Below are positions 5,646-64,000 of a stretch of 64,000 nucleotides of DNA, piece by piece. The position numbers were made by a program, and so were the translations under genes. The stretch comes from Dastarcus helophoroides (lineage: Eukaryota; Arthropoda; Insecta; Coleoptera; Bothrideridae). The stretch's first letter is position 1; each line of letters starts with the position of its first letter. The notes below the pieces were generated by a model that was given only the letters and a program-made list of their open reading frames with translations, had not been told where the DNA came from and searched no databases. The stretch covers positions 19,971,118-20,035,117 of the forward strand of contig CM053334.1 of NCBI GenBank assembly GCA_028583605.1, in the 5' to 3' direction.

Positions 5646-7040
5646 ATGTTCAATGGTAAATTTAAATTATGTTACAGATCCTTATCAAGCTTGACTATTT
5701 TTCATTTTAGAATGTGATCAGAGAGCAAATTCGCCTTTGCCTTTTTTTGAATATTCCGAAGATGACATCGTAGAAAATTCCTGCAATGTAAAAACAGAAG
5801 AGCCGGTGGCCCAAATTAAACAGGAGCCCGTTGAAAATGCTCAAAACAACGTGCAAGGTCAATCTGAACTACCCCCACCTGTTGAATTAAAAACTGAACA
5901 GAGTGATACATCGAGTGCAATAGAATTAGAAACTACAGATAAAATAGAAATAGAAGAACCTGCCGACTATAAAAATTTACTGGAAACCACAAAAACGGAA
6001 ACTGATAGGTAAATTTTAAAAGAATGTTATCATCAGTAGTTTATTGGCAATATTAGCGATTTGTTTTTAGTGTGAACAATCGTAAGAAAAAGCGGCAGAA
6101 GGCGCCAGTAACCACAACGCAAGATGCTACCAAATCGCAAGTGCTCCAATGTGGTCACTGTGATTATACAGCGAAGGTAATGGGCAATCTCAGACGCCAC
6201 ATTAGTGGTGTTCATCTAAAACACCAGCCATATAAATGCGACATTTGCAACTTTCAATGTGTGCAAAAAATCCACTTGACACGTCACAAATCATCACATT
6301 ATAGAAAATGCAGATACTGCGATTATGTCGGGATAAATCAACAAGCGCTGTCGGCGCATAGAATTGCGAATCACAGCATGTACAAATGCCGGTATTGCGA
6401 CTATATGACCAAACGCAAAGAGCACTTGGAAACGCACGAGAACGCCATCCATCTTAAAAAAGACAAGTATTCGTGTTCTGAGTGCAGTTATACAGCGTTG
6501 TACAAATGCAGTATAAGAACGCATAAGAGACTGATGCATAAGCAAATTTATTACAACTGCGATAAGTGCGATTACAAAAGTAAGGTGGAGAAACGGCTTA
6601 AAAACCACATAAATACGATCCACACCAGAGAGGAATTGGTCTACTGCGCCCATTGCGATTACACATCGACCGTCAAGTCGAGTTTGGCGACACATTTACG
6701 CAACAATCACGCGCTTACCGCGGCTTTTAAATGCGAAAAATGCGACTTTGCTTCCAAGGAGAAGAAGGAGCTGGTTAGACATGTTAAAATGGAGCATGAA
6801 AATTGTTATAACTTCGAGTGCAACGACTGCGGTTTTCTGACCAAAACTAAAATAAACTTGGAGGTCCATATTATAGCCAAACATCTTAAACAGAGGCCGT
6901 TTCAGTGTAAATTGTGTCCATATGCTGCTATCACTAAAAGATCTCTTTTCGTACATGCTACAGCGAAACATAAAGAAGCTTTTGTTAAGAAAGAATCGAT
7001 TAAAGACGAATTTGTTTTCTGGAAAAAAATAAGTTTTTAA
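5646..7040 (+). CDS. Ten-finger C2H2 zinc-finger protein, copy B (3 exons)
   Basis: A tandem paralogue of the gene at 546, 425 residues long. Coding exons are 5646-5655, 5711-6008 and 6071-7040 (1278 bases, in frame), with introns of 55 and 62 bases in the same positions and phases as copy A. Exon 1 encodes MFN plus a base. The acidic part repeats the psi-K-x-E motifs (VKTE, IKQE, LKTE). A basic stretch NNRKKKRQK opens exon 3 and could be a nuclear signal; copy A has only NNQKSPEIK there. Ten C2H2 fingers run from about residue 128 (LQCGHC) to 410 (FQCKLC). Fingers 7-10 are the most similar to copy A. An AATAAA lies near 7154. Expected role is nuclear sequence-specific binding; the target is unknown. 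Confidence 0.9.
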
Positions 7041-9255: not shown

Positions 9256-11970
9256 CTAGAGGACCATCCTTGGTCTCCTAATCCTGGTTGGGATGTCTGG
9301 ATCGTAATCCACCGCCTGTCGAACTAGTTCGTTTGAATGCGTTTCCGCTCTCACCATCGCCCTGGAATTAATTTCCCTAAGAAAATCTCTTACCAAAGGT
9401 AGTTCAGCTTCTCTATGGAGCTGATTGTTTCTCGCAAACCATGGAGCATCCATGGCTTGTCTTAGGAAGACGTTCTGGAACACCTGGAGTTTCTTCATCT
9501 GATTATCCGTCGCTTGTGACCAGGCTACAGATGCGTAGGTCATTGCTGGTCTTATAATTGATTTATATAGTAACACTTTAAGTCCAATGGACAGGTTACT
9601 ATTTCTACCAATCATCGCTTGCAGCAGTCCCTTCAGCATTTTGGCTCTGGACACTGCATAATCGATGTGTGCTTGGAATGTTAGTCTTTTGTCTAGAATG
9701 ACACCTAGATACTTTGCCTGAAGTCTCCAGTCGACGTTTTGCCCATGAACATTTACATGTCCATCTGGTTGGAGTCTTTTTCGAGTGAAAAAGACTGCTT
9801 GGGTCTTGTCTGCGTTGACTTGGATTCTCCATTGGCCAAAGTAATCTAGTAGACTGTCTGTTGCCTCCTGAAGTCGTCTGGTGACCACCTCTGGGCTGAA
9901 AGAGTACGCCACTAAAGCTGTGTCATCTGCGTAAGTTGCCAATAAGGTGTTGTCGGTTGTTGGATTGGTTCTCGGAATGTCTTCTGTGAACAGAGAATAC
10001 AGCAGAGGTGACAAGGCAGAACCTTGAGGTACCCCATACTATAACCTAAACTGGTTTGATAGTTCCTGTCCCACCTTTGCTCTAAAGGAGCGCTGGTCCA
10101 GGAACGAGCTTACCATTTGAACCATTGTTAGAGGTATTCCAAACTGGTGCATCTTGTAGACTAATCCTTCATGCCAAACTGTGTCAAATGCCTTGGAGAT
10201 ATCGAAGAAGATAGCTCCAACTACCTGGTTCCAATTCATGCATTAAGTGATTGTTTCCACCACTCTCAACAGTTGGTCTGAGGTAGAGTGCATAGGTTGG
10301 AAACCAAATTGTTCCTTGGGAATGATGTCGCGATCGCTGATGATATTCTGCAGACGCTTCCTTAAAATCCTTTCGGCCACCTTACCCAAGTTGGATAAGA
10401 GGCTGATTGGCCTGTAATTTTGAGAAAATTTCCCATCCTTACCTGCCTTAGGAATAAAGATAACATTTGCAGACTTCCATCTGATTGGAAAATATCGGAA
10501 TTTAAACATAGAATTGACTATAGCTCCAAAGTATTTGACAGCTTGATCCGGAAGAGACTTCAAAGCTTGGTTTGAAATTCCGTCTGGACCTGGAGACTTT
10601 TTGACATTTAACTTGCGCAGAAGGCTTTGGATTTCCTCTTTGTTAGTCGACTGGATGATGTCGTCTTCCTCTGGCACTTCCTCCTGAAGAATTTGAACCT
10701 CTTCTTCCACCTCATCTACGAAGTCTAAGTTCACTTCTTCAAGTGTGGCCTGACAGTGTCTTTCAAAGGTCTCAGCAAAAGCTGCGGCCTTTTCCTGATC
10801 TGAGTAAGCCATTCCTTGAGGTCCGTGTATCGGAGGGAAAGGTTTCCTAACTCCTCTTAGAGCTTTGGCTGTGCGCCAGAGATCTGATGAAGTTTCGAGG
10901 TTGCAGCTCCTTAGGTGTTCCTGAAATTTAGAAGTTTTGTGCTCTCTGAGTTCATACCTGAGCTCGTGGATGACCCTGTTGACTTCCGCCTTATCTGCTT
11001 GCAGATTGGTCCGTCTTGCTCTCTTCCTGGCACGATTTTTCCTCTTAATCAGCTCCACCAAGTGATTTGGCAGTGGTTCCCTTCCTTCTATACGCCGGAA
11101 AGTTTTGGTCGCAGCCAGAATTGAATCTGTTATAGTGGTTTCCAGTCTCTCCACCCCTGTGTTGATGTCATCGTTTGTATTGATCTCTCCAGGCTCTTCC
11201 AGGTTTGCTGCCAGATACTCCCTGAACTGTGTCCAGTTTGTTTTCTGGCAGGTTTCTGGAGGCTTGGGTCCACGATCATCTCCGATGGTCATCATCACTG
11301 GGTTGTGGTCTGAGCTGAGCTCACTAACTGATGTTAACTCAACAGTGTATCGAACATCCTTCATCAGTGCAACGTCCAGGACATCTGGTATTCCTGTGGC
11401 GTTATGATGATGGGTTGGTTCTTCTGGAGCCATTACATCGATTCCGTTCTGTGCTGTGAACCTTTGAAGTGTCCTCCCGTTTTTGTTGTTGACTCTGCTG
11501 CCCCACTCGACGTTTTTGGCATTAAGGTCTCCGGCTACAATAACATTGTTATTGCTTATTTCGAAGATGCGTGTCAAATCTGTCTCTGTGAGGGCGTTGG
11601 TTATGGAATAACAAGAGACCAGCGTCAGAGGTCCCTGCGCCATTTGAATTGTTACTCCAATTCCTTCCAGCTTTTCCAACTCCGGGGTGCCTGCAGCAAA
11701 ATGCGTTAGCTTTCTATTTACGTAAATAGTTGTGCCTCCTCCTGGGCCAGTTGGTCTGTCTCTGCGGTGAAGAACATATCCTCGGATTTTGGGATCCTTA
11801 GATCTGAACGTCATCCTGGTTTCGCTCAGCATCAGTACGTCCAAGTCGTTTTCCTTTGCGAAAACTTCTAGTTCGTTCCTGTTGCCTTGGAGTCCGTTGC
11901 AGTTCCAGAAAACTGCCTTGAGATGCTGACGACGAGCAGGATTTCCTCCATTAACTCTCCTTTCCTGGCT
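9256..11970 (-). pseudogene. LINE ORF2: endonuclease and reverse transcriptase, two stops
   Basis: One reading frame runs from about 11970 to the stop at 9256. It holds an apurinic-type endonuclease: WNCNGLQGN near the start, then LMLSETR, VAGDLNAKN and SSDHNPV. The reverse transcriptase follows: YRPISLLSN, QFGFQPMHST, FDISKAFDTVWH, GVPQGSALSPLLY and the catalytic TYADDTAL. In-frame stops lie at 10243-10245 (TAA, just before the DISKAFD block) and 10039-10041 (TAG, just before GVPQG). Both fall inside the RT domain, so this copy should not make an active enzyme. The protein normally nicks target DNA and copies the element's RNA there. The first ATG (11844) is downstream of WNCNGL and is unlikely to be the native start. 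Confidence 0.92.
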
Positions 11971-12073
11971 CTATCCATTAGTGTTTTAGACTAAGGATCT
12001 TTGGATCTCATGATAGAGACGATGGCCTCTTGACTGTTTTGTGCTTCGGAGACTGCTCTCACCAAGTCCAGCA

Positions 12074-13131
12074 CTACTTGGTTCGTTTTTTCCGAAGTTT
12101 TCTTTGGGTAACAACTGAAGCGTAGGACTTAGTGTTTCCACTTACCTTGCTGAAGACCTTTGGATTCGATGGAACCTTTGGAGTAACAGCTGTCGCTTTG
12201 GTTGTTGTCGGTTTTGCCTTGGAAGTTGTCGGGCTTGTCATCTTGGTTTTGGGTTGACTTTCCTTCTCTGCCGCCTTCTGCTTTCTCGGTTTCGGGAAAG
12301 CGGGACATCCCCTGTAGCTGGCTACGTGATCTCCTTTGCAGTTGGCGCATTTAAAGGACTTGTTTTCTGGCTTCTTACAGTCTTTTGTGGAGTGCTTCCC
12401 AGCACACTTGACACAGACTGCTTCCGCGTGGCAATTTCTCTGAGAGTGATTGAATCTTTGACAATTGTGGCACTGGTTAACTGCTGCTGATGGTTTGAGG
12501 GATTCAACTTGGATTTCCAAGCCCATAATCTTCTCCAACTTGTATATTCTGTCCTCTCCGTGATGCAGTTCTAACATCATCATGTTGTAGGCCTTTTTGG
12601 TGAATCTGTTTTTCATCCTGGAGGCGCTCATTACCTTGAACCCCTCTTCTTCAACGGCCTTCCTGAAGTCCTCCTCAGGAATTTCTTTTGGAATTCTCCG
12701 GACGACCACCTTGACCGTCCTCTCCTCTGGGAGAGCGAAAGAATGGTACGGAATCTTTTCGCTATCCATCAGTCTGGTGAGCTTTCTGAAGTCATCGACC
12801 GTTGCTGGCTGGACTCTGACTCCATCGTTGACGCTCTTCGCCTTTGTGTATCCTATTTTCCTGGAATTTATCAGCAGGTTAATACTTCTCCACTTACCAG
12901 CATCTCTGATGATGACGGGAGGGATCCTTGGTTCTTTTTCGTCCTTTGGTTCCATATTTGCCTTCTCTGGGGCTTCTACGGGAACCTCGTTTCTCGCTGA
13001 AGCTTTATTTGCTTCTGGTTTGGTCGGGGTTGGGGTTTCTTCTCCTGAAGAAGCCTCTTCTTCGGTTGAGGTTTTCTTGACCGCCTTTTTCTTTAGGCTC
13101 TTCTTTTTCCTGACAATCTGAAAAGGTTCCT
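12074..13131 (-). pseudogene. LINE ORF1: gag-like nucleic-acid-binding protein, 5'-truncated
   Basis: The frame is open from the element's 5' edge (13131) to the stop at 12074. The first in-frame ATG is at 12955, but the open frame upstream is Lys/Glu-rich coding sequence, so the native N-terminus was probably lost at integration. The middle resembles the region that precedes the knuckles in arthropod gag proteins (MSASRMKNRFTKKAYNMMML). It is followed by three Cys-rich zinc knuckles (CHNCQRFNHSQRNC, CVKCAGKHSTKDC, CANCKGDHVASYRGC). A Lys/Thr/Pro-rich basic tail ends KLRKKRTK. Such proteins bind the element's RNA. The gap to ORF2 is about 100 bases. Confidence 0.88.
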
Positions 13132-13144
13132 CTACACCGACTCT
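13132..13144. repeat. Target-site duplication of the LINE, right
   Basis: Exact copy of 8999-9011. Removing the LINE and one copy restores a continuous LTR-like sequence comparable to 45596-45946. Confidence 0.9.
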
Positions 13145-13558
13145 AACTGACTTGTTACGAAGGAAAGCCGACCGCCTTATATAGTTTTGGCCTCCAGGTT
13201 CTAGAACAATCCGGCAGATAAGGCTTATCGTTTGCCGAAATTTCGGGAACGCTTATCTGCCGTTTGCTTCGTTATCGCGGCCGCTTTCCCCTTATCAGAT
13301 CTTTCTAGAAACTTTTCTTACGTACCAAATCCTACAATTCTATTCTAAATTCTATTCTATCTATTTACATTGCGTTACAGTATTTTAATATTATAAATTT
13401 ATTTTAGAAAACCGGATAAACAGTGGCGGCTCGTAGAAAATTTCGATATTTTCGAAACGTTCTTCGAAAATTTTATATTTCTTTGAAAACTTGGCAATAA
13501 AAACTTTTGATAATGTCGCGTTTTTTGAAAGGTTGAATTTTTTTCCAAATTTCGAATG

Positions 13559-21220: not shown

Positions 21221-24065
21221 GTATCATAGACGAATTTAGTTAACACGCACGAATTCTAGATATAAACGTTAAGTAAATGAAATACAATTTGTGATTATTT
21301 AAACCAAATCCCTGCTGCTAAGAAAGGGAGAGATGCATTTAGAAAAATTGGAAACCTGTCTACCAAGCAGTTTGGAGCCCGGCAACTTTTAAATGAAACG
21401 TAACAGCCCTATTTCATTGACACCTACGTATTCGGCATCCTAAAGTTGCAGCAGATTGGATAATATTTGTGATTATTTAATCCAAATCCTGACTGCTATG
21501 GAAGCGAGAGACGATTTTCTCTAAAATTCAATAACTCGCATCTAAGCCATTTGAAGGCTTGTAACTTTCAAACGAGGTGTCATAGACGAATTTAGTTAAC
21601 ACGTGCGAATTCTAGATATAAACATTGAGTAAACGAGATACAATTTGTGATTATTTAAACCAAATCCCGGCAGCTAAGAAAGGGAGAGACGCTTTTAGAA
21701 AAAGTCAAAACCTGTCTACTAAGCAGTTTGGAGTCCTGCAACTTTTAAATGAAACGTAACAGCCCTATTTCATTGACACCTACGGATTCGGCATCCTAAA
21801 GTTGAGCAGATTGGATAAAATTTGTGATTATTTAATCCAAATCCTGACTGCTATGGAAGGGAGAGACGCTTCTTTGTAAAATGCGAAAACTCACTGCTAA
21901 GTCATTTGAAGACTTGTAACTTTCAAACGAGATGTCAAAGACGAATTTAGTTAACTCGTGCGAATTCTAGATATAAACATTGAGCAAATGAGATACAATT
22001 TGTGATTATTTAAACCAAATCCCGGCAGCTAAGAAAGGGAGAGACGCTTTTAGAAAAAGTCGAAACCTGTCTACTAAGCAGTTTGGAGTCCTGCAACTTT
22101 TAAATGAAACGTAACAGCCCTATTTCATTGACACCTACGGATTCGGCATCCTAAAGTTAAGCAGATTGGATAAAATTTGTGATTATTTAATCCAAATCCT
22201 GACTGCTATGGAAGGGAGAGACGCTTTTCTGTAAAATGCGATAACTCGCATCCAAGCCATTTGAAGGCTTGTAATTTTCACACGAGGTGTTATAGACGAA
22301 TTTAGTTAACACGTGCGAATTCTAGATATAAACATTAAGCAAATAAGATACAATTTGTGATTCTTTAAAATAAATCCCGGCCACTAAGAAAGGGAGAGAC
22401 GCTTTTAGAAAAATTTAAAACCTGTCTACTAAGCAGTTTGGAGCCCTGCAACTTTCAAATAAAACGTAACAGCTCTATTTCATTGACACCTGCGGCTTCG
22501 GCTTCCCAAAGTTGAGCAGATTGGACAAAATTTGTGATTATTTAATCCAAATCCTGACTGCTATGGAAGGGAGAGACGCTTTTCTGTAAAATGCGAAAAC
22601 TCGCATCTAAGCAAATTGTAGGCTTGTAACTTACAAACGAGGAGTCATAGATGAATTTGGTTAACACATGCGAATTCTAGATATAAACATTGAGTAAATG
22701 AGATACAATTTGTGATTATTTAAACGAAATCCCGGCCGCTAAGAAGGGGAGAGACGCTTTTAGAAAAATTCGAAACTTGTCTACTAAGCAGTTTGGAGTC
22801 CTTCAACTTTTAAATGAAACGTAACAGCCCTATTTCATTGACACCTATGGATTCGGCATCCTAAAGTTAAGCAGATTGGATAAAATTTGTGATTATTTAA
22901 TCCAAATCCTGACTGCTATGGAAGGGAGAGACGCTTTTCTGTAAAATGCGAAAACTCGCATCTAAGCAATTTGTAGGCTTGTAACTTACAAACAAGGAGT
23001 CATAGATGAATTTGGTTAACACGTGCGAATTCTAGATATAAACATTGAGTAAATGAGATACAATTTGTGATTATTTAAACCAAATCCCGGCCGCTAAGAA
23101 GGGGAGAGACGCTTTTAGAAAAATTCGAAACCTGTCTACTAAGCAGTTTGGAGTCCTGCAACTTTTAAATGAAACGTAACAGCCCTATTTCATTGACACC
23201 TACGGATTCGGCATCCTAAAGTTGAGCAGATTGGATAACATTTGTGATTATTTAATCCAAATCCTGACTGCTATGGAAGGGAGAGACGCTTTTCTGTAAA
23301 ATGCGAAAACTCGCATCTAAGCCATTTGTAGGCTTGTAACTTACAAACGAGGAGTCATAGATGAATTTGGTTAACACATGCGAATTCTAGATATAAACAT
23401 TGAGTAAATGAGATACAATTTGTGATTATTTAAACCAAATCCCGGCCGCTAAGAAGGGGAGAGACGCTTTTAGAAAAATTCGAAACCTGTCTACTAAGCA
23501 GTTTGGAGTCCTGCAACTTTTAAATGAAACGTAACAGCCCTATTTCATTGACACCTACGGATTCGGCATCCTAAAGTTGAGCAGATTGGATAACATTTGT
23601 GATTATTTAATCCAAATCCTGACTGCTATGGAAGGGAGAGACGCTTTTCTGTAAAATGCGAAAACTCGCATCCAAGCCATTTGAAGGCTTGTAATTTTCA
23701 CACGAGGTGTTATAGACGAATTTAGTTAACACGTGCGAATTCTAGATATAAACATTAAGCAAATGAGATACAATTTGTGATTATTTAAACCAAATCCCGG
23801 CAGCTAAGAAAGGGAGAGACGCTTTTAGAAAAATTCGAAACCCGTCTACTAAGCAGTTTGGAGCCCTGTAACTATAAAATAAAACGTAACAGCCCTATTT
23901 CATTGACACCTACGGATTCGGCATCCTAAGGTTGAGCAAATTCGACAAAATTTGTGATTATTTAATCCAAATCCTGACTGCTGTGGAAGGGAGAGACGCT
24001 TGTCTGTAAAATGCGAAAACTCACAACTAAGCCATTTGAAGGCTTGTAACTTTCAAACGAGGTGT
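21221..24065. repeat. 355-bp satellite, eight copies
   Basis: The landmark cgaattctagatataaac occurs at 21250, 21606, 21961, 22316, 22671, 23026, 23381 and 23736, a period of 355-356. Each monomer is itself a diverged dimer of ~178 bases. Both halves start tttgtgattatttaa, continue ccaaatcc, and contain gggagagacgcttt. The array holds a whole number of monomers (about 2845 = 8 x 355) and starts and stops at the edges of the two ATACCG-ended repeats. Confidence 0.95.
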
Positions 24066-32559: not shown

Positions 32560-32673
32560 AATTTTGTCATTTCAGGCAAAGATAACTTGAGTTAAACGAA
32601 CTAATATTGACGTTTTTCGCCGCCGCGACACCTTTCAAAACCTAATATTCGGTCCAAATTTAAAATTCCCGCA

Positions 32674-33840
32674 ATGGACTTTCCTCTCGTGACGAAAAAA
32701 TTGGTGGGCAGAGGCCAGCGTTTCTGCGCTTCAGAGGCCACTTTCTTATACAAAAATTTACAGTTAAAAATGGCCGATGCCAGCCAGCTGAGGATGAAAC
32801 CGCAGAATCACGAGAACAGATTCGGCCAGGTCTTTACAGATCACATGTTGAAGATATCTTACAGTAAAACTAAGGGTGGATGGGAGTATCCTCGGATTAT
32901 TCCGCTGGAGAACATCGTGTTGCATCCGGGGGCCAAAGTGCTCCATAACGCCATCGAATTATTCGAGGGTATGCAAGCTTTTAGAGGTGTGGATGATAAA
33001 GTTAGGATATTCAGACCTGAATTCAATATGAGGCGGATGAATATATCAGCGGAAAATGCCGAGTTGCCCACTTTTAAAGGGAAAGAGTTGGTTAAGTGTT
33101 TGAAAAAGTTGATTCAAATCGAGAAAGACTGGATTCCCGCCACTAAAGCGAACGCTTTGTATATTAGACCAACTCTAATAGGGGTCGATGGAACTTTAGG
33201 TTTGGAAAAATCGAATTACGCGTTACTCTTCGTATTCGTGTGTCCGATAGTACGTGGATTCTTTAAAGATGGCGTCAAATTGTTAGCAGACCCAGCTTAC
33301 GTTAGAACTTGTCCCGGGGGTGTTGGTCATGTAAAAATGGGTGCCAAATACGTTCCAACGATTAAAATTCAGCAGGAGGTGCTCAGGCGGGGACTGCAGC
33401 AAATTCTATGGCTTTACGGACCTGACCATCAAATCACGGAAATAGGCAGTATGAACGTCATGGTTGTTTACAAGGATAAAGCCGGTTTTAAAGTTGTGGC
33501 TACCCCTCCGCTGGAGGGATTGGTTTTAGAAGGAGTTGCTAGAAGTTCGATTTTGGAACTGGTAAACGAGTGGAAAGATTACAAAGTTGAAGAACGTGTA
33601 ATCACCATGAAAGAAATCATTGAATTGAACAAAAATAGTTGTTTGTTGGAAATGTTTGGTTGTGGTATTGCTTGTGCAGTGAGTCCTGTCAGCGAAATTG
33701 AATATTTGGGGCAGAGATTGGTCATACCTACTACGAAGCACCCGGAACCACTCTATGAAAGAATACGGTTGAAAATAAATGATATACTGTATGGTCATAT
33801 CAAACACCCTTGGGCACAAGGCATAGATGATATTGTATGA
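32674..33840 (+). CDS. Branched-chain amino acid aminotransferase, intronless, altered active site
   Basis: A fold-type IV PLP aminotransferase of the BCAT family, which normally interconverts Leu/Ile/Val and their 2-oxo acids. The 388 residues fill one exon. An N-terminal ~32-residue extension rich in K/R and S (VTKKLVGRGQRF) could target mitochondria. Family blocks are clear: FTDHMLK (54-60), ELFEGMQAFRG (95-105), LYIRPTLIG (162-170), LLADPAYVRTCPGG (203-216), LWLYGPDHQITEIGSMN (246-261). The PLP lysine is K221 in GHVKMGAKY. Unusually, the usual GVTR reads GVAR (A289) and FG-x-GTA reads FGCGIA (I332). Both threonines hold the PLP phosphate in characterised BCATs. GTGD around the lysine is also changed (GVGH), so activity is doubtful or altered. 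An AATAAA at 33974-33979 follows. The intact frame suggests selection, or recent retroposition from a spliced parent. Confidence 0.93.
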   Translation: MDFPLVTKKLVGRGQRFCASEATFLYKNLQLKMADASQLRMKPQNHENRFGQVFTDHMLKISYSKTKGGWEYPRIIPLENIVLHPGAKVLHNAIELFEGMQAFRGVDDKVRIFRPEFNMRRMNISAENAELPTFKGKELVKCLKKLIQIEKDWIPATKANALYIRPTLIGVDGTLGLEKSNYALLFVFVCPIVRGFFKDGVKLLADPAYVRTCPGGVGHVKMGAKYVPTIKIQQEVLRRGLQQILWLYGPDHQITEIGSMNVMVVYKDKAGFKVVATPPLEGLVLEGVARSSILELVNEWKDYKVEERVITMKEIIELNKNSCLLEMFGCGIACAVSPVSEIEYLGQRLVIPTTKHPEPLYERIRLKINDILYGHIKHPWAQGIDDIV

Positions 33841-50400: not shown

Positions 50401-52038
50401 GGACATCTTCCTGATTGAGAAACAAACTTTTACCCCCAAAAAGTTTCTATCGATTTCCATGAAACTCTTGTAACTAAGGGTTTTTTGGTTTAAGGAAACG
50501 ATCTATATAAATTTAGGATCACCATTTTTTAGGGGCATGTTCCTCCTGCAGGAATAATTTTTATGTCCGAAACGACTCTATCAACGTCGATGAACTAGGT
50601 AACTAGGATATCTTTAGGTCAGAAAAATGATCTAGATATCGAAGCAATTTTAGTAAAAATTCGGATCTTTACTTATTGGGAGCATCTTCCTTCTTGAGAA
50701 ACAATTTCTTCTCTCTGAAACGGTTCTGTCGATTTCCAGAGAGAGGATCACTATTTTTAGGGATGTTTTTCTCCTTCAGGAAAAATTCAAACTCAAACTT
50801 TAATGAAACTTGATAACTAGAAGATTTTTGGGTGATAAGTGCTATTTTAGTAAAATTTTGATGTCACCATCTTTTAGGGACATCTTACTCGTTGAGGACA
50901 GGATAAAGATAAGAAATCTTTAGCGTAAGAAAAATACATCTATTGAGATTTTTGGAACAAAATGACACTTCGAGAAAAATTACATTTATAAAATGAAGAG
51001 AAAGAAATACATATCAGTTAGGCGAGCCAATCACAGCAAATCCAGTTTGCTACTCTCTCCCTTGAGGCAAGATTCCAAAAAAATTTTAATTTATTGTTAT
51101 TTTATCTTACCTGCGCTATAGTGACTATAATATATTTTTAAAATGCATTTCACTTTATTCACAATCCAGTTTGTTATCTTTTCGAACATAAAAATAACAA
51201 AGCAAAGATAAACAAAGTATATCTGGCAATAAATGCTCCCCTTAGCCTAATTCTTTTAAAAACTGCACTAGAAATATTCTAAAAGTAATAAATAGCATAA
51301 GAATTAGGGTTCCTAGGTTTCTAACAGCAAAGCGAGATATTGATCAAAGGGAGGGAGATAAGGGGCTGTGCCGATAACAATAAAAAATGCCCCAAAATAA
51401 TTTTTAACGACCAAAAATGAAAAACGGGCATAACTTTAGTATTTGCCAATAATTTTTTTACGATTAAAAAACAGTTATTCCCCAAAAAAAATCGTCGACT
51501 AAAAAAATATATCATGCCCTTGAATTCTCAATAATTGGTATTTTTTGCATCCTCCTGGGCATAAGGCTAGGGAAATATTGTAAAATTGTGAAATTTGACA
51601 GAACATACTATAATTATATGATAACAAATTAAACAAAATTTTAAAATAATATGGGTTATTATTGTACGTGTAAATTTAACTTTATAATGCGATACAACGT
51701 TAATATGAAAAAAAGTGAACAAAAACAAGTGCTGATGTTAATATGAACCATTTTGTAACATTATTTATATTAAGCCCAATTTTTGAGGCCTAGACACGCT
51801 GCGCGTGTTTTGAGCATGAAGCGATTGTTCCTATGGACAAGCTAGGCGTGTTCTTAGCATGGAATGTGCTAATGAAAGTCTCATTAAAATCGGTTTAGCA
51901 GTTTTCGAGATTAGCCCTGACAAAAGATCAGTTGATAGACAGACAGACAGGCAAGACAGATAGACAGACAGGCAGACAGATAGATAGACAGACAGATAGA
52001 TAGACAGACAGATAGATAGACAGACAGGCAAACAGACG

Positions 52039-52069
<31 letters not shown>

Positions 52070-52181
52070 AGGCAGACACACAGATAGGCAGACAGGCAGA
52101 CGGTTAGATGGACAGACAGATAGATAGACAGACAGGCAAACAGACAGACAGACAGACAGACAGATAGACAGACAGATAGAC

Positions 52182-52212
<31 letters not shown>

Positions 52213-52264
52213 TAGGCAGACAGGCAGACAGTTAGATAGACAGACAGATAGATAGACAGACAGG

Positions 52265-52301
<37 letters not shown>

Positions 52302-52306
52302 CGACC

Positions 52307-52350
<44 letters not shown>

Positions 52351-53535
52351 GGCAGACAGGCAGACAGGCAGACAGGCAGACAGGCAGACAGGCAGACAGG
52401 CAGACAGGCAGACAGGCAGACAGGCAGACAGGCAGACAGGCAGACAGGCAGACAGGCAGACAGGCAGACAGGCAGACAGACAGACAGGCAGACAGGCAGA
52501 CAAACAAACAAACAGACAGACAGACAGACAGACAGGCAGACAGACAGACAGACAGACAGACAGACAGGCAGGCAGACCGACAGGCAGACAGACAAACAAA
52601 CAAACAGATAGACACTTAGAGGCTTCAATTTTATAACTCGTAATATAGATGAATGACATAACGACACAATGACTGAGACACACTGTATGGCTACTCTTTT
52701 TTAAAATATCCTCTTTCGTTAGCCATTTTTTGAAGCTTGTTTGTGTATCAGTCTTATTATTTTTTTTTGATTCACAATCACTGCTTTAGTGTCTAATTTA
52801 ATTTGTATCCAATCGCTTTAAACTGTAATAATATTTTTATTGAATTCGTTGATATTCATCAATTTTCCTGTAAACAACGGAAGTAATGTCAACCGAAAAA
52901 TATAAACAAATTTGGGTTAACTGACATTTTTATTTTTATTGTACGTGTAACTTGAAATCAACGACAGAATATTTGCATTATTCAAACACGAATGGCAAAT
53001 GCGTTGAATAGTCTATGAACGTTACAAAGTTTTGGATATTAATTAATTATAATTTGTAATCGTTTAATTTGAATTTTCTAAGTTGTTTTCCTTAATAGAA
53101 AACATGTAATTCAGGTTCTGACTTTTCAAAACAAGAAAATCGAAAAATCAAACCAATTGAACAACATAAATTTTTTAAAATATTTTTTAACATTCAGGAT
53201 TTGCTTAAATGTTTTCAAATATTTAAAATCGCTTCTTTAGGCTGCATTTTGAATTACTTTTTCGTTGCTTTTGGGTCGTCCCCCATTTCTTTTTTCAAGC
53301 CTTTAGACTCTGAGCTGTTACCACAACATAACAAAGAAAACAGTCTCTTTCCATTGCTCCAATTTTTATCTGTCTCATGTTATTTTTTCAAACATACCTG
53401 TTCACGAAAAATGGAACCAAGAAAGGTAATTTTCGAAAATTTTTGAACCACCAAAGAAAATTTAAAAATAAATTGAAAAAGAATACTTACAACAGATAGT
53501 ACAAGGAATCCACCTAGAAGCTTGAAGTGGCTCAT
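44472..53535 (-). CDS. Predicted secreted acidic Ser/Thr-rich protein, 2 exons
   Basis: Function not recognised. Exon 1 (53535-53491) encodes MSHFKLLGGFLVLSV, ending at a GTAAGT donor. Exon 2 (45242-44472) follows a TTCTTGCAG acceptor and starts VFHVSLGTPF. The phase-0 join makes a plausible signal peptide of about 20 residues and a 271-residue protein. The mature part has a poly-Ser tract, long acidic runs (DISDDDEANEAS, DDDFDREQAEFDKEFEEDAA), three N-glycosylation sequons (NKT twice, NMT), and a short repeat (ANEASDH, EDEASDH, ANEASAQ). A hydrophobic C-terminal stretch (LGVFFSELLGTFLGLAYGAA) may contact or cross a membrane. The alternative start inside the acceptor region (ATG at 45263) lacks a signal peptide. 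The 8.2-kb intron contains most repeats of 45.3-53 kb. The gene is divergent from the acid phosphatase (826 bases between ATGs) and may share its promoter region. Confidence 0.7.
45344..45578 (+). mobile_element. Hairpin retroposon, near-complete copy
   Basis: Both arms are present, joined through a short gata microsatellite, followed by the tail ggagcagtccgtttcacc and an A-run. The 14-base flanks tcacttttatattg and tcacttttacattg differ at one position. The core here is CTGAGGA, stem GATAGT/GCTATC, GAAA. Confidence 0.8.
45596..45946 (+). mobile_element. LTR-like promoter element
   Basis: A 350-base copy of the sequence split by the LINE at 8844-13379. It starts TGTAATG and ends GCAACA, with a TATA box tatataa at 45766-45772 and AATAAA at 45888-45893 followed by gtgggtatt. 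This order (TATA, start region, poly(A) signal) is that of a retroviral-type LTR. No gag-pol sequence lies next to either copy, so both look like solo LTRs. It abuts the hairpin retroposon. Confidence 0.55.
45947..46489. other. Intronic spacer, nothing recognised
   Basis: Part of the large intron of the secreted-protein gene. The open frames at 46097-46310 overlap on both strands without recognisable motifs. Confidence 0.4.
46942..49851. mobile_element. hAT-type element, CAGGAATGAGC ends
   Basis: A 2.9-kb insertion starting CAGGAATGAGCAACC and ending GCTCATCCTTG, flanked by a perfect 8-base duplication atctagac (46934-46941 and 49852-49859). The right end contains the gcgggccgcatgtggcc motif that I recall from widespread hAT elements. 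The interior is the same degenerate AT-rich cgaaatttt-type sequence as in the other hAT-type elements, and a copy of the ATACCG-ended repeat is nested at 48665-49238. No transposase is visible. Confidence 0.88.
48665..49238. mobile_element. ATACCG-ended repeat, copy 3
   Basis: Begins TGATACCGGAACCGCG, ends ATACGGTATAA, about 574 bases, without any satellite monomers attached. The flanks share ataaattg, which may be the target duplication, although it overlaps the right terminus. Confidence 0.8.
50891..51932. other. Intronic spacer
   Basis: No gene seen. The last ~65 bases (ctcattaaaatcggtttagc, agttttcgagattagcc) resemble the conserved 3' tails of insect non-LTR elements that precede simple repeats. 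This is from memory of such tails. Confidence 0.35.
51933..52613. repeat. CAGA/CAGG tetranucleotide microsatellite
   Basis: About 680 bases of (CAGA)n with blocks of alternating CAGG-CAGA (for example 52350-52490) and CAGATAGA segments. It is open in several frames only because the repeat lacks stops. Confidence 0.97.
52614..53490. other. Intronic spacer
   Basis: No supported feature apart from the donor side of the secreted-protein intron at its right edge. The open frame 53201-53446 has no domain or clear splice support. Confidence 0.4.
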
Positions 53536-54360: not shown

Positions 54361-57300
54361 ATGAATTTAGTGCACACCACAATTATTTTATGTTCTGTTT
54401 CACTTGTCACGTCGATACCAATAAAATCAAAACAAGAATTACTTTCTGTCGTTACTGTAAGTTTCATTTTTTTTTCACCTTAATCAGTTCGCCATTTTCT
54501 TTTTCTGACTTCGTATTTTTTGTGTTTTCTTATGTTCTGTTTCATTTGTCACATTAATACCAATAAAATCAAACGAAGAATGACTTTCTGTCGCTATTGT
54601 AAGTTTCATTTTTTTTCATGTTAATTAATTTGCCATTTTCTTTTTCTGATTTCGTATTTTTTGTGTGTTTTTTATGTTCTGTTTTATTTGCCACATTAAA
54701 ACCAATAAAATCACACCAAGAATGATTTTCTGTCGTTATTTTGAGTTTCACTTTTTTCACGTTAATCAGTTTGCCATTTTCTTTTTCTGACTTCGTATTT
54801 GTTGTCTTTTTTTATGTTTTGTTTCATAATAATAAAATCCAATCAAATCAAAACAAGAATTACTTTCAGTCGTTACTGTAAGTTTCATTTTTTTTTTCAC
54901 GTTAATCAGTTTGCCATTTTCTTTCTCTGATTTCGTATTTGTTGTGTTTTTTTATGTTCTGTTTTATTTGTCACATTGATACCAATAAAATCACACCAAG
55001 AATGACTTTCTATCTTATTGTAAGTTTCATTTTTTTCATGCTAATCAGTTTCCTATTTTTTTTTGCTGACTTCGTATTTTTTGTGTTTTCTTATGTTCTG
55101 TTTCATTTGTCACATTAATACCAATAAAATCAAACGAAGAATGACTTTCTGTCGCTATTGTAAGTTTCATTTTTTTTCATGTTAATCAGTTTGCCATTTT
55201 CTTTTTCTGATTTCGTATTTTTTGTGTTTTTTTATGTTCTGTTTTATTTGTCACATTAAAACCAATAAAATCACACCAAGAATGATTTTCTATCGTCATT
55301 GTAAATTTCATTTTTTTTCACGTTAATCAGTTTGCCATTTTCTTTTTCTGACTTCGTAGTTTTTGTGTTTTTTTATGTTTTATTTTCATTAATAATAAAA
55401 TCCAATCAAATCAAAACAAGAATTACTTTCTGTCGTTACTGTAAGATTCATTTTATTTACGTTAATCAGTTTGCCATTTTCTTTCTCTGATTTCGCATTT
55501 GTTATGTTTTTTTATGTTCTGTTTTATTTGTCACATTGATACCAATAAAATCACACCAAGAATGACTTTCTATCGTTATTGTAAGTTTCATTTTTTTGTA
55601 ATGTTAATCAGTTTGCCATTTTCTTTTTCTGACTTCGTATTTTTTGAGTTTTTTATGTTCTGTTTCATTTGTGACGTCGATACCAATAAAATCACAACAA
55701 AAATTATTTTCTGTTGCTATTGCAAGATTCATTTTTTTCACGTTAATCAGTTTGCCATTTTCTTGTTCTGACTTCGTATTTTTTATGTTTTTTTATGTTC
55801 TGTTTTATTTGTCACATTGATATCAGTAAAATCACACCAAGAATGACGTTCTATCGTTATTGGTAAGTTTCAGTTTTTTGGTCATGTTAATTAGGTTGCC
55901 ATTTTCTTTTTCTGAATTCGTATTTTTTGTGTTTTGTTTCATTAATAATAAAATCCAATAAAATCACAACAAAAATTACTTTCAGTCGTTATTGTAAGTT
56001 TTATTTTTTTACGTTAATCAGTTTGCCATTTTCTTTCTCTGATTTCGTATTTTTTGTGTTTTTTTATGTTCTGTTTTATTTGTCACATTGATATCAATAA
56101 AATCAGACCAAGAATGACATTCTGTCGTTATTGTAAGCATCTTTTTTTCTCCTGCTAATCAGTTTCCTATATTTTTGCTGACTTCGTTTTTTTTGTGTTT
56201 TTTTTTATGTTCTGTTTCATTTGTCACATTAATATCAATAAAATCACACGAAGAATGACTTTCTGTCGCTATTGTAAGTTTCACTTTCTTTTCATGTTAA
56301 TCAGTTTGCCATTTTCTTTTTTTGATCTCGTATTTTTTGTATTTTTTTTATGTTCTATTTGATTTGTCACATTAATACCAATAAAATCACACAAAGAATG
56401 ATTTTCTGGCGCTATTGTAAGTTTCATTTTTTTTGTAATGTAAATCAGTTTGCCATTTTCTTTTTCTGACTTTGTATTTTTTAAGTTTTTTATGTTCTGT
56501 TTCATTTGTAACGTCGATACCAATAAAATCACACGAAGAATGATTTTCTGTCGCTATTGTAAACTACATTTTTTCTCATATTAATCAGTTTGCCATTTTC
56601 TTTCTCTGATTTCGTATTTTTTGTGTTTTTTTATGTCCTCTTTTATTTGTCACATTGAGACCAATAAAATCACATCAAGAATGACTTTCTGTCGATATTG
56701 TAAGCTTCATTTTTTTCAGGCTAATCAGTTTCCTATTTTTTTTGCTGACTTCGTATTTTTTGTGTTTCTTATGCTCTGTTTTATTTGTCACATTGATATC
56801 AATAAAATCACAACAAGAATGACTTTCTGTCGTTATTGTCATTTTCATTTTTTTTCATGTTAATCAGTTTGCTATTTTTTTCTCTGATTTCGTATTTTTT
56901 GTGTTTTTTTATGTTCTGTTTTATTTGTCACATTGATACCAATAAAATCACACTAAGAATGATTTTCTGTTGTTATTGTAACCTTCTTTTTTTTCATGCT
57001 AATCAGTTTCCTATTTTTTTTTGCTGACTTCGTATTTTTTGTGTTTTTTATGTTCTGTTTTAATTATCACATAAAATCACACCAAGAATGATTTTCTGTT
57101 GTCATTGTAAGTTTCATATTTTTTTACGTTAACAACTTTGACATTTTTTTTCTGACTTCGTATTTTTTGTGTTTTTTTTATGTTCTGTTTCACTTGTCAC
57201 ATTGATACCAATAAAATAACTAAAAGATTTACTTTCTGTCGTTACCGTAATTTTCATTTTTCTTCACGTTAATCAGCTTGTCATTTTTTTTCTGACTTCG

Positions 57301-60300
57301 TATTTTTTGTGTTTTTGATGTTTTGTTTCATTAATAATAAAATCCAATCAAATCACAACAAGAATTACTTTCTGTCGTTACTATAAGTTTCATTTTTTTT
57401 CACGTTAATCAGTTTGCCATTTTCTTTTTCAGAGTTCGTATTTTTTGTGTTTTTTCATGCTCTGTTTCATTTGTTACATTGATACCAATAAAATCACACT
57501 GTCTGTCGTTATTGTAAGCTTCATTTTTTTATGCTAATCAATTTCTTAGTATCTTGCTGACTTCGTATTTTTTCTGTTTTTTTTATGTTTTGTTTCATTT
57601 GTGTCATTAATACCAATAAAATCACACCAAGAATGACTTTCTGTCGCTATTGTAAGTTTCATTTTTTTTCACGTTAATCAGTTTGTCATTTTCTTTTTCT
57701 AATTTCGTATTTTTTGTTTTTTTTTTATGTTCTGTTTCACTTGTCATATTGATACCAATAAAATCACAAAAAAATTTACTCTCTGTCGTTACTGTAAGTT
57801 TCATTTTTCTTCACGTTAATCAGTCTGCCATTTTCTTTTTCTGATTTCGTATTTTTTTGTGTTTTTTTTATGTTTTGTTTCATTAATAATAAAATCTAAT
57901 AAAATCGCAACAAGAATTACTTTCTGTCGTTACTGTAAGTTTCATTTTTTTTTCACGTTAATCAGTTTGCCATTTTCTTTCTCTGATTTCGTATCTTTTA
58001 AGTTTTTTTATTTCCTGTTTTATTTGTCATATTGAGACCAATAAAATCACACCAAAAATGACTTTCTATCGTTATTGTAAGCTTCATTTTTTGATGCTAA
58101 TCAGTTTCCTATTTTTTTTTTGCTGACTTCGTATCTTTTGTGTTTTTTTATGTTGTTTTTCATTTGTCACATTAATACCAATAAAATCATATGAAGAATC
58201 GAAGAACGACTTTCTGTCGTTATTGTAAGTTTCATTTTTTTCATGTTAATCAGTTTGCCATTTTCTTTCTCTGATTTCGAATTTTTTGTGTTTTTTTATG
58301 TTCTGTTTTATTTGTCACATTGATACCAATAAAACCACACCAAGAATGATTTTCTGTCGTTATTGTAAGTTTCATTTTTTTTCATGTTAATCAGTTTTGC
58401 CATTTTCTTTTTCTGATTTTGTATTTTCTTATTTAAGAAGGTAGAAGAGTTAGAAATTTTCAATTGCAGATTTTTAGACATGGAGACCGAACACCATTGC
58501 ATACGTATCCCAATGATCCTTATAAAAACGCATCGTACTGGCCGGTCGACTTTGGACAACTTACGAACGTAAGTCGTTATACTGTAGCCTCTAGTATCCC
58601 CATTTTGGAGAGTTCCGATTTTCGAGCCCCAAAATCGAGTTGAAATTTCCTACACTTGTATACTCCTGAGAAAAAAAAAAGCGAAATTTCGAAAAAAATC
58701 AAATTTAATAAAAAAATACGTCTTTAAAGTGCAAAATTTCCAAAAAAGTGGAAATTTCATAATTCGGTTGAAATTTAGAGTTTGCTATCGTTTCGAGTAA
58801 AAAATAAGTTTCACCAAAAAAATTGAATTTGTATGAACAAATCATCAAACTTTCGACTTTAAATTCGAATTATCCAGAATGTCTTAAATGAAAAAGAGTA
58901 GAAATAAATTTAAAAAAATAATTAAAAAGTGTTTAACAGTGTAACATTTTTGTAGATTGGCAAAAGGCAGCATTACGCCCTAGGAAGGTGGTTCCGCAAG
59001 CGCTACAACGGATTTTTGCCGGAATTCTACTCCGATAAAGACATCTATGTCCAAACCACAGACAAAGACAGAACTCATATGTCAGCGGCGGCGAATCTCG
59101 CTGGACTTTACCCGCCCAAAGGGAGACAAATCTGGAACGCCAACATACCCTGGCAACCGATCCCAATTCACACCGTTCCAGAATCTGATGACGCAGTTTT
59201 AGCCGGCAAGAAACTGTGTCCGTTACACTTGGAGTTGTTAGAGAGATTGTTGAAGAAAAAAATCTTTGTAAAAATCGATGAGGAACACAAAAATTGTATG
59301 AGTATATTAGTAATCACACGGGGAACAACTACACGTCGTTTAGGCAGCTCAAATCGTTATACGACACGCTCGCAATCGAACAATTGTATAATATGACGCT
59401 CCCGGAATGGACCCATGGGGTATTCCCACACGCGCTATTTAGTTTCGTTGTGCTAGACTACATATTACCGACGTATAACTCACAACTGGCGCGGCTGCAA
59501 ATGGGGCCGTTCTTTTATCAGTTAATCGACCATTTTAACGCCTTCGCAGAAAGAACATCCGACGGAAGAGAAACCAAGGGAAAATTGTACCAAAAAAGCA
59601 GTGGTGGAGAATTTCATCAAAAAACTAGCGCCGAGTCTCTTGAAAAAACTAGGAGCGAGTTCCTTGGGAAAACTAGGGACGAGTTCCTTGGGAAAACTAG
59701 GGGCGAGTTTCTCGGGGAAACTTCGGACGAGTTCCTTGGGGAAACTAGGGGCGAGTTTCTCGGGGAAACTTCGGACGAGTTCCTTGGGGAAACTAGGGGC
59801 GAGTTGCTGGGGAAAATTAGGGGCGAGTTTCTGGGGAAAACTAGGGGCGAATTTCTTGGGAAAACTAGGAATGAGTTTCGTGAAAAAACCAGCGCACAGT
59901 CCCATCAGAAATCGAGCGGAGGATCTCGTTTTAAAATCAAGAATTATCAAAGAATTGGCGGAGATTTCTATCAAAAAATCGAAGGAACATCGGGTGAAAA
60001 TGCAACTAGCGAAAAACCGGGGGCAGCCAGCCGACGGACAACCAGTGGTGGAAATGGGGGCAAAAGTTTATTATGCTGTCGGCCCACGATGGGACAATCG
60101 TCAATATATTGAACAGTTTGGGGCTTTACGAACCACATAAGCCGCCTTACGCTGGTGCCCTCATTTTTGAAATGTACAGGGGCGGACGAGGGGAATATGT
60201 GAAAATATTTTATAAGAATTCCACGGTGCCTATTCAGTTGACTTTGAGCGGTTGCACTAGCGCTTGTAGTTACGACAGCTTCGTGGAGCTGCTTGAAAGA

Positions 60301-60339
60301 GGTGACGCTCAATTTGGACGACTGGGAAAAAGAATGTAA
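54361..60339 (+). CDS. Histidine acid phosphatase, 3 exons, two frame breaks
   Basis: A secreted or lysosomal phosphomonoesterase of the histidine phosphatase superfamily, acid phosphatase branch. Exon 1 (54361-54456) encodes a signal peptide (MNLVHTTIILCSVSLVTSIP). Exon 2 (58470-58568) opens with the catalytic IFRHGDRTP. Exon 3 (58956-60339) starts IGKRQHYALGRWFRKRY. All joins are phase 0. The T-x-x-x-R-x-x-x-S block (TTDKDRTHMSA) and the proton-donor SAHDGTI are present. The frame shifts in an A5 run near 59289-59293, and again between about 60010 and 60112, perhaps in the G5 run at 60056-60060. Each fits one missing base, so homopolymer assembly errors or real decay are both possible. Between LIDHF and the SAHD block about 150 residues of repeats replace the usual short linker. 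Intron 1 is filled by an exon-1-derived satellite. Confidence 0.88.
54388..58440 (+). repeat. ~140-bp satellite made of exon 1 and its donor site
   Basis: Twenty-nine tandem units counting the real exon. Each carries the last 69 bases of acid phosphatase exon 1 (from ttatgttctg to the donor) and the first ~73 bases of intron 1. Donor positions step at about 140 bases: 54457, 54599, 54741, 54878, 55020, 55160 and so on to 58364 (mean 139.5). Twenty of the 28 extra copies keep GTAAG exactly. A variant with cattaataataaaatccaa recurs near 54830, 55390, 55930, 57330 and 57880, at multiples of about four units, so a higher-order pattern exists. The derived copies mostly carry a TGA in the exon-1 frame (gaatgac in place of gaattac). 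Confidence 0.92.
58569..58955. other. Acid phosphatase intron 2
   Basis: GT...TTTTTGTAG intron, AT-rich with gaaatttcgaaaaaa words like the hAT interiors. No other feature seen. Confidence 0.7.
59632..59890 (+). repeat. 24-bp coding minisatellite in acid phosphatase exon 3
   Basis: About ten units of the type ttccttggggaaactagggg followed by cgag, with a 48-base double unit. Translated in the gene's second frame they read GEFLGKTR / DEFLGETS. The unit is a multiple of three, so several frames on both strands stay open here. Confidence 0.9.

Positions 60340-61859: not shown

Positions 61860-64000
<2,141 letters not shown>

What the first reader, a model, noticed from the sequence alone, without database searches (positions are those of the whole stretch)
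54388..58440. A satellite built from a gene's own first exon and splice donor
The array filling intron 1 of the acid phosphatase gene is 28 tandem copies of the last 69 bases of exon 1 plus the first ~73 bases of the intron. The first unit is the real, in-frame signal-peptide exon, which identifies the origin. Twenty copies still have GTAAG. Satellites usually arise from non-coding DNA. Here the seed is a coding exon boundary, and the copies stay in place next to their source, offering the spliceosome many competing 5' sites.
Basis: seen in the sequence. Interest (0 to 1): 0.92.

Follow-up and report, generated by a model that had tools for sequence, protein, structure and literature searches.

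The report
Intron array copied from exon-1 boundary
In one acid phosphatase gene, probably of an insect, the end of the first exon and the start of its intron were copied in tandem until they filled the intron, leaving many spare splice start sites beside a gene whose later coding sequence now looks broken.

Summary
Window 54388-58434 is 29 head-to-tail units: unit 1 is the last 69 nt of exon 1 plus 73 nt of intron, followed by 28 diverged copies that fill intron 1. GTAAG survives in 20 of 28 copies. The functional suggestion is not supported: donor columns are no better kept than the rest (0.897 vs 0.896), 2 of 28 copies keep the exon's frame, none has an in-frame ATG. "Satellite" is too strong: this is a single-locus intronic array. 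Exon 3 of this gene lies in three frames, while 6 of 6 comparable paralogous genes keep one, so the gene looks recently disabled. Best reading: a junction-seeded array grown by unequal exchange and spliced out as drifting cargo. Closest precedent found: the ABCA7 intron-18 VNTR, whose unit begins with the real donor (PMC5954066, passages). No RNA data were available.

The parts
54361..54456 (+). Exon 1 of a histidine acid phosphatase-like gene (signal peptide and first mature residues; phase-0 donor at 54457)
   Evidence: Translation; two-exon peptide matches prostatic acid phosphatase; same exon-1 end and donor phase in six paralogous genes
54388..54529 (+). Unit 1 of the array, the seed: 69 nt of exon 1 + 73 nt of intron 1
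   Evidence: Segmentation and alignment
54530..58434 (+). 28 diverged tandem copies of unit 1 (128-148 nt each); 20 keep GTAAG; 23 of 28 keep the aligned AATAAA
   Evidence: tree and higher-order period of 4 units
54457..58469 (+). Intron 1, 4,013 nt; 108 nt remain if the 28 extra units are not counted
   Evidence: Length; unit ends; the rest is subtraction
58470..58568 (+). Exon 2, with the RHGDR catalytic motif
   Evidence: no Pfam match on its own (33 aa)
58956..59282 (+). Exon 3, first piece (His_Phos_2)
   Evidence: Pfam PF00328 E 1e-16; PDB 1cvi E 2.1e-28
59285..59560 (+). Exon 3, middle piece, in a different frame from the first
   Evidence: No PDB hit and no Pfam hit for the frame 59285-60109, but tblastn to six paralogous genes
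59561..60045 (+). Stretch absent from six paralogous genes, with 24-bp tandem repeats at 59619-59889
   Evidence: TRF; gap of 12-27 nt in six paralogous genes against 485 nt here (from the coordinates)
60046..60336 (+). Exon 3, last piece, in a third frame
   Evidence: Pfam PF00328 E 1.2e-7; PDB 1rpa E 3.1e-15

Best explanation
A tandem duplication across the exon-1/intron-1 junction of one member of an expanded acid phosphatase family produced a 142-bp unit, which unequal exchange (sometimes in blocks of four units) amplified in place to 29 copies, lengthening an intron of about 108 nt to 4,013 nt. Shown: the junction seed, single-locus restriction (one query), exon-first polarity, block structure, decay of coding frame in the copies. 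Inferred: unequal exchange as the mechanism; the transcript is (or was) spliced from the cap-proximal exon-1 donor to exon 2 with the array removed as drifting cargo; any leak to a copy donor would be non-productive, because reading on past exon 1 meets a stop after 8 codons. The array probably grew while the gene was still under coding constraint; the exon-3 damage looks younger.
For: 29 units beginning with exon 1. All 29 genome matches are this array, one candidate region. Six paralogous genes with the same exon-1 end, donor phase and a 50-3,365-nt intron 1, none among the matches of unit 1; no TRF array overlaps the exons that I listed for the nine fetched loci. Lag-4 identity 0.846 vs 0.816, 5,000 permutations, p 0.0002; lag 14 p 0.0024; 14 lags tested. 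Donor columns at array mean; 2 of 28 copies open in frame. Array divergence 0.161 (JC); a neutral depth of 0.08 gave about 4.5 stops in the exon-3 pieces, P(0) 0.012, and none is seen. Long-period arrays are common in the fetched loci of this genome (7 of 9), so array birth is ordinary here.
Against: No RNA data. Exon 1 has no private exonic change, but neither have 12 of 28 copies, so constraint on exon 1 is not shown separately. AATAAA columns are kept somewhat better than the rest (0.971 vs 0.892, p 0.02, uncorrected for four motifs), not predicted by pure drift. The stop-count dating assumes equal rates, ignores homogenisation, and rests on pieces chosen because they are open. Exon 1 was not found convincingly by my pattern in three of nine paralogue loci (L030, L032, L036) and is doubtful in a fourth (L037). 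A second genome query with a divergent unit did not complete.
Confidence: 0.77

Rival explanations
1. Splice-decoy array: the copy donors compete with exon 1's donor, mis-spliced messages carry stops and are destroyed, and more copies mean less product, as longer arrays go with lower expression in ABCA7; this may have led to loss of the gene.
For: 15 of 28 copies have GTAAGT identical to exon 1; 14 copies score at or above the exon-1 donor; any copy donor gives a stop 8 codons past exon 1. In ABCA7 a one-unit donor shift is used, and array length tracks exon-19 skipping and lower expression (PMC5954066, passages). Exon 3 is in three frames.
Against: No sign of selection on donors. Exon 1's donor is the cap-proximal one. 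Array acceptors at or above the family median are at chance (1 vs 1.4 expected; 6 reach the weakest family acceptor, no control run for that), so few copies could form cassette exons. In ABCA7 unit retention itself did not change with array length.
Confidence: 0.15
2. Array-first: an existing satellite entered the intron or supplied exon 1, so the exon came from the satellite.
For: Exon 1 lies inside the monomer tree; the genome has many tandem arrays.
Against: Six array-free paralogous genes have the same exon-1 end and phase, and the last residues of exon 1 fall in the match to mammalian prostatic acid phosphatase. Unit 1 was found nowhere else.
Confidence: 0.02
3. Poly(A)-signal and U1-site pairs: each unit carries AATAAA upstream of a U1 site, so the array works as a chain of guarded cleavage sites, ending transcription early when U1 is limiting.
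For: 28 AATAAA in intron 1 vs 1.8 in shuffles; AATAAA columns better kept than average. U1 protects intronic poly(A) signals in human, mouse and Drosophila (PMC5499120, abstract start in listing).
Against: AATAAA and GTAAG are not kept together (both 16, AATAAA only 7, GTAAG only 4, neither 1, of 28 copies; Fisher p 1.0). AATAAA is part of the inherited coding seed, so its number follows from copying. The better conservation is weak and uncorrected.
Confidence: 0.04
4. Assembly artefact or collapsed reads.
For: Tandem arrays are hard to assemble (general knowledge).
Against: Units differ by 14.5% on average with ordered block structure; contig C10 is 33.7 Mb.
Confidence: 0.02

Closest known systems
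ABCA7 intron-18 VNTR (human; PMC5954066, passages read)
   Same: Tandem array starts at an exon's 5' splice site; the first unit holds the real donor and later units offer copies of it
   Different: 25-bp unit starting at the GT, no coding sequence in it, units that vary only slightly (23.7 in the reference), polymorphic with measured splicing effects; here a 142-bp unit with 69 coding nt, 29 diverged units, no RNA data
Potato RdRp boundary duplication with intron gain (PMC4974935, abstract); Gao and Lynch 2009 internal gene duplication (title seen in a reference list only)
   Same: Tandem duplication across an exon-intron boundary copies splice signals
   Different: In potato one duplication across the intron-1/exon-2 boundary made a new intron; here 28 extra copies of a donor junction lengthen an existing intron
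Satellite DNA with higher-order repeats (review PMC5615363, passages)
   Same: Head-to-tail units, joint amplification of neighbouring monomers; the review says repeats could in theory arise from any sequence and names rDNA spacers and transposons as seeds
   Different: One locus of about 4 kb inside a gene, seeded by a coding exon boundary
Satellite-bearing gigantic introns of Drosophila kl-3 and kl-5 (PMC6508621, abstract start in listing)
   Same: Tandem repeats in an intron that must be transcribed and removed
   Different: Megabase introns; nothing that I saw says their repeats came from the gene's own exon

Membership tests
Intronic VNTR bearing the splice donor (ABCA7 type) | Array abuts the exon and its first unit contains the functional donor | tested here: met
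   Unit 1 spans 54388-54529 and includes the predicted donor at 54457; use of the donor is inferred, not shown
Intronic VNTR bearing the splice donor (ABCA7 type) | Unit number varies between individuals | not testable with these tools
   One assembly only
Intronic VNTR bearing the splice donor (ABCA7 type) | Array changes splicing or expression | not testable with these tools
   No RNA; only donor scores
Satellite DNA | Long head-to-tail arrays of one unit | tested here: met
   29 units, about 4 kb, short for a satellite
Satellite DNA | Large or multi-locus genomic family | tested here: not met
   All 29 matches in 539 Mb lie in this array (one query; the search skips very common words and scores only the best candidates)
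Tandem alternative exons | Copies keep an open frame and both splice sites | tested here: not met
   2 of 28 copies open in frame; acceptors not above chance at the family median
Histidine acid phosphatase (PF00328) | Profile match above the curated cut-off and RHGxR motif | tested here: met
   61.8 and 31.9 bits vs cut-off 23.6 in two exon-3 pieces; RHGDR in exon 2
Histidine acid phosphatase (PF00328) | Intact reading frame | tested here: not met
   Three exon-3 pieces in three frames here, one frame in 6 of 6 paralogous genes for which all three pieces were found

The most novel reading that the evidence does not exclude
A gene's own exon-donor junction acted as a self-amplifying seed: the extra U1 sites (15 of 28 copies still identical at GTAAGT) turned intron 1 into a copy-number-dependent splicing brake that lowered output until the coding sequence was no longer maintained, a route by which tandem-repeat growth retires a gene.
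Probability: 0.08. Interest if true: 0.72.

Novelty: new variant of a known kind. Interest (0 to 1): 0.42.

Why it matters
It is a clean case in which the seed of a tandem array can be named almost to the base and polarised by paralogues: coding exon first, array second. It offers a natural test of how a spliceosome picks the true donor among about 14 downstream copies of similar predicted strength, and shows how one small intron may have grown almost forty-fold. If decoy donors do lower output, it links array growth to gene loss; if not, it shows that donor copies downstream of a first exon are harmless.

Tried and rejected
Selection for donors: not above array mean. Cassette exons: a CAG at the conserved TTAATCAG looked like an acceptor, but on a matrix from 16 family acceptors the one copy of it among the best 30 sites scores 2.2, below the weakest family acceptor (4.2), and array acceptors at or above the family median are at chance. 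Recursive splice sites: no AGGTAAG in intron 1. Coupling of AATAAA and donor: none. Constraint on exon 1 from private changes: 0, but 12 of 28 copies also have 0, inconclusive. Excess divergence of this gene at residues invariant in the six other genes: 2 of 33, 3 of 15 and 0 of 10, within the range of the paralogues, so no sign of long decay. Homologues of the middle exon-3 piece in the protein database: 8 candidates, none at E 0.001. tRNA scan: none. A second genome search with a divergent unit did not complete, so 'nowhere else' rests on one query. Literature: the listings (titles and abstract starts; some searches showed only 15 of 25, 12 of 1,337 and 12 of 14 papers) held no array of tens of copies seeded by a coding exon boundary that I recognised; this is absence from those listings only. 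Passages of PMC7605655 (dmrt1 duplication) and PMC6692358 (miR-137 VNTR) were read and are less close.

I call it an insect only from general features (non-LTR retrotransposon with a PRE_C2HC frame; a large acid phosphatase family) and recall; no test was made.
Full report
What is there. Intron 1 of a histidine acid phosphatase-like gene on the + strand is filled by 29 tandem units, 54388-58434. Unit 1 is the last 69 nt of exon 1 and the first 73 nt of the intron. Exon 1 is 54361-54456 and exon 2 58470-58568, both phase 0. The peptide of exons 1 and 2 matches rat prostatic acid phosphatase at E 1.3e-9, the match running back into exon 1 (residues 26-64 of 65). Exon 3 pieces match PF00328 at 61.8 and 31.9 bits against a cut-off of 23.6 and prostatic acid phosphatase structures at E 2.1e-28 and 3.1e-15; the middle piece has no PDB match. 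Intron 1 is 4,013 nt; the 28 extra units account for 3,905, leaving 108.

The copies. GTAAG stands at the aligned donor in 21 of 29 units, 20 of 28 copies, and GTAAGT in 15 of 28 copies. In the whole intron GTAAGT occurs 16 times (15 in the copies, plus exon 1's own donor, which forms the first six bases of the intron) against 0.84 in shuffles, as copying implies. This is not special retention: 40 of 137 five-base windows of the unit are kept in at least as many units, and mean conservation of the GTAAGT columns is 0.897 against 0.896 elsewhere. The exonic part is kept slightly less well than the intronic part (0.884 vs 0.907). Only 3 of 29 units, exon 1 included, keep length and frame without a stop; the two copies are at 55653 and 57725, and the first has GCAAG for a donor. 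No copy shows an in-frame methionine in its exonic part (read by eye). The copies therefore cannot serve as first coding exons.

Array history. Mean identity between units is 0.816. Units four apart are more alike (0.846; 5,000 permutations, p 0.0002) and units 14 apart also (p 0.0024), of 14 lags tested; the units at 54530 and 55091 are 97% identical. In the unrooted tree unit 1 pairs with the unit at 55653 (support 73) and these two with the units at 57178 and 57725 (support 67).

Which came first. The window lies at G000:C10:19971118-20035117 of a 539-Mb genome in 50 contigs. A search with unit 1 gave 29 matches, all in this array. A search with the exon 1-2 peptide gave, besides the window's own exons, 17 places at E 0.001 or better, 11 of them on the same contig. 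I fetched nine regions of about 10 kb on that contig, which cover 10 of the 11; the six places on other contigs were not examined further. A pattern scan found an exon 1 ending in the same motif with a GT at the same phase-0 place, followed by its exon 2, in six genes: L029, L031, L033, L034 (two genes) and L035, with introns of 3,365, 175, 756, 50, 66 and 62 nt (lengths by subtraction, exon-2 starts). The L029 intron holds a small 17-bp array (searches's input), not this unit. In L037 a similar exon 1 lies 7 kb from the exon 2 and may belong to another gene; in L030, L032 and L036 the pattern found none that convinces. No TRF array overlaps the exons that I listed for these loci. The exon is thus ancestral and the array derived.

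State of the gene. Three exon-3 pieces homologous to the paralogues lie in three different frames here, but in one frame in 6 of 6 paralogous genes for which all three were found (L029, L030, L033, L034 twice, L037). The other four loci (L031, L032, L035, L036) gave no exon-3 match in the roughly 2 kb held beyond exon 2. Between the second and third piece this gene has 485 nt, with 24-bp repeats, where the six genes have 12-27 nt. Six clean paralogues make a general indel error of the assembly unlikely, but a local one is not excluded. The damage looks young: the pieces hold no stop and depart from residues invariant in the six others at 2 of 33, 3 of 15 and 0 of 10. Array divergence is 0.161 between units (JC), a depth of about 0.08; neutral evolution of the pieces for that depth gave a mean of 4.5 stops, with none in 1.2% of 1,000 runs. 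Hence, by inference, the array arose while the gene was constrained. The calculation assumes equal rates, ignores homogenisation, and uses pieces that were picked as open.

Could it affect splicing? On a matrix from 16 donors of the family, 14 copy donors score at or above exon 1's own donor. Reading on past exon 1 meets a stop after 8 codons, so use of any copy donor would be non-productive. Acceptor-like sites in the array are at chance (1 at or above the family median against 1.4 expected; 6 reach the weakest family acceptor, without a control). AATAAA, inherited from the coding seed, stands in 23 of 28 copies; its columns are better kept than the rest (p 0.02, uncorrected for four motifs) but not coupled to donor retention (Fisher p 1.0). 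No RNA was available, so competition is possible and untested.

Comparison. The nearest published case found is the ABCA7 intron-18 VNTR, whose 25-bp unit begins with the exon-18 donor; one-unit retention occurs, does not change with array length, while exon-19 skipping rises with it (PMC5954066, passages). Boundary-crossing tandem duplication is described in a potato RdRp gene (PMC4974935, abstract). A satellite review names rDNA spacers and transposons as seeds, and says that repeats could in theory arise from any sequence (PMC5615363, passages). What is added here is a seed that includes coding sequence, tens of diverged copies, and polarity shown by paralogues. I therefore rate it a new variant of a known kind. 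The setting is deflating too: arrays of period 100 or more with at least 2.5 copies lie in 7 of the 9 fetched loci and number three in the window, this one included, so one landing on an exon boundary is not very unlikely.

Noticed in passing
59619-59889: 24-bp tandem repeats inside exon 3 of the same gene, in a 485-nt stretch absent from six paralogous genes; a second, independent tandem expansion in one gene.
   Followed up: partly
21224-24065; L032:4-5903; L035 (reverse strand): A period-355 array (two half-units of about 178) in the window, and arrays of the same period beside two acid phosphatase paralogues; the printed consensus of the window and of L035 share a long stretch, so probably one satellite family, not aligned here.
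   Followed up: no
9256-13252: Non-LTR retrotransposon on the minus strand: a PRE_C2HC gag-like frame and an endonuclease/reverse transcriptase frame, with further reverse transcriptase-like sequence in a separate open frame.
   Followed up: no
32611-33840: Uninterrupted 409-aa class IV aminotransferase frame, by recall like a branched-chain aminotransferase, with no intron in it; a possible retrocopy.
   Followed up: no
1070-2008 and 6057-7040: Two similar C2H2 zinc-finger frames in tandem (Pfam for the first only).
   Followed up: no
51937-52614 and 63106-63774: Long simple-repeat tracts: AGAC-type with period 8, and AG with period 2.
   Followed up: no
G000:C10 18.25-20.16 Mb: Cluster of acid phosphatase paralogues on one contig: 11 places besides the window gene at E 0.001 or better, and six more on C1, C2 and C3.
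   Followed up: partly
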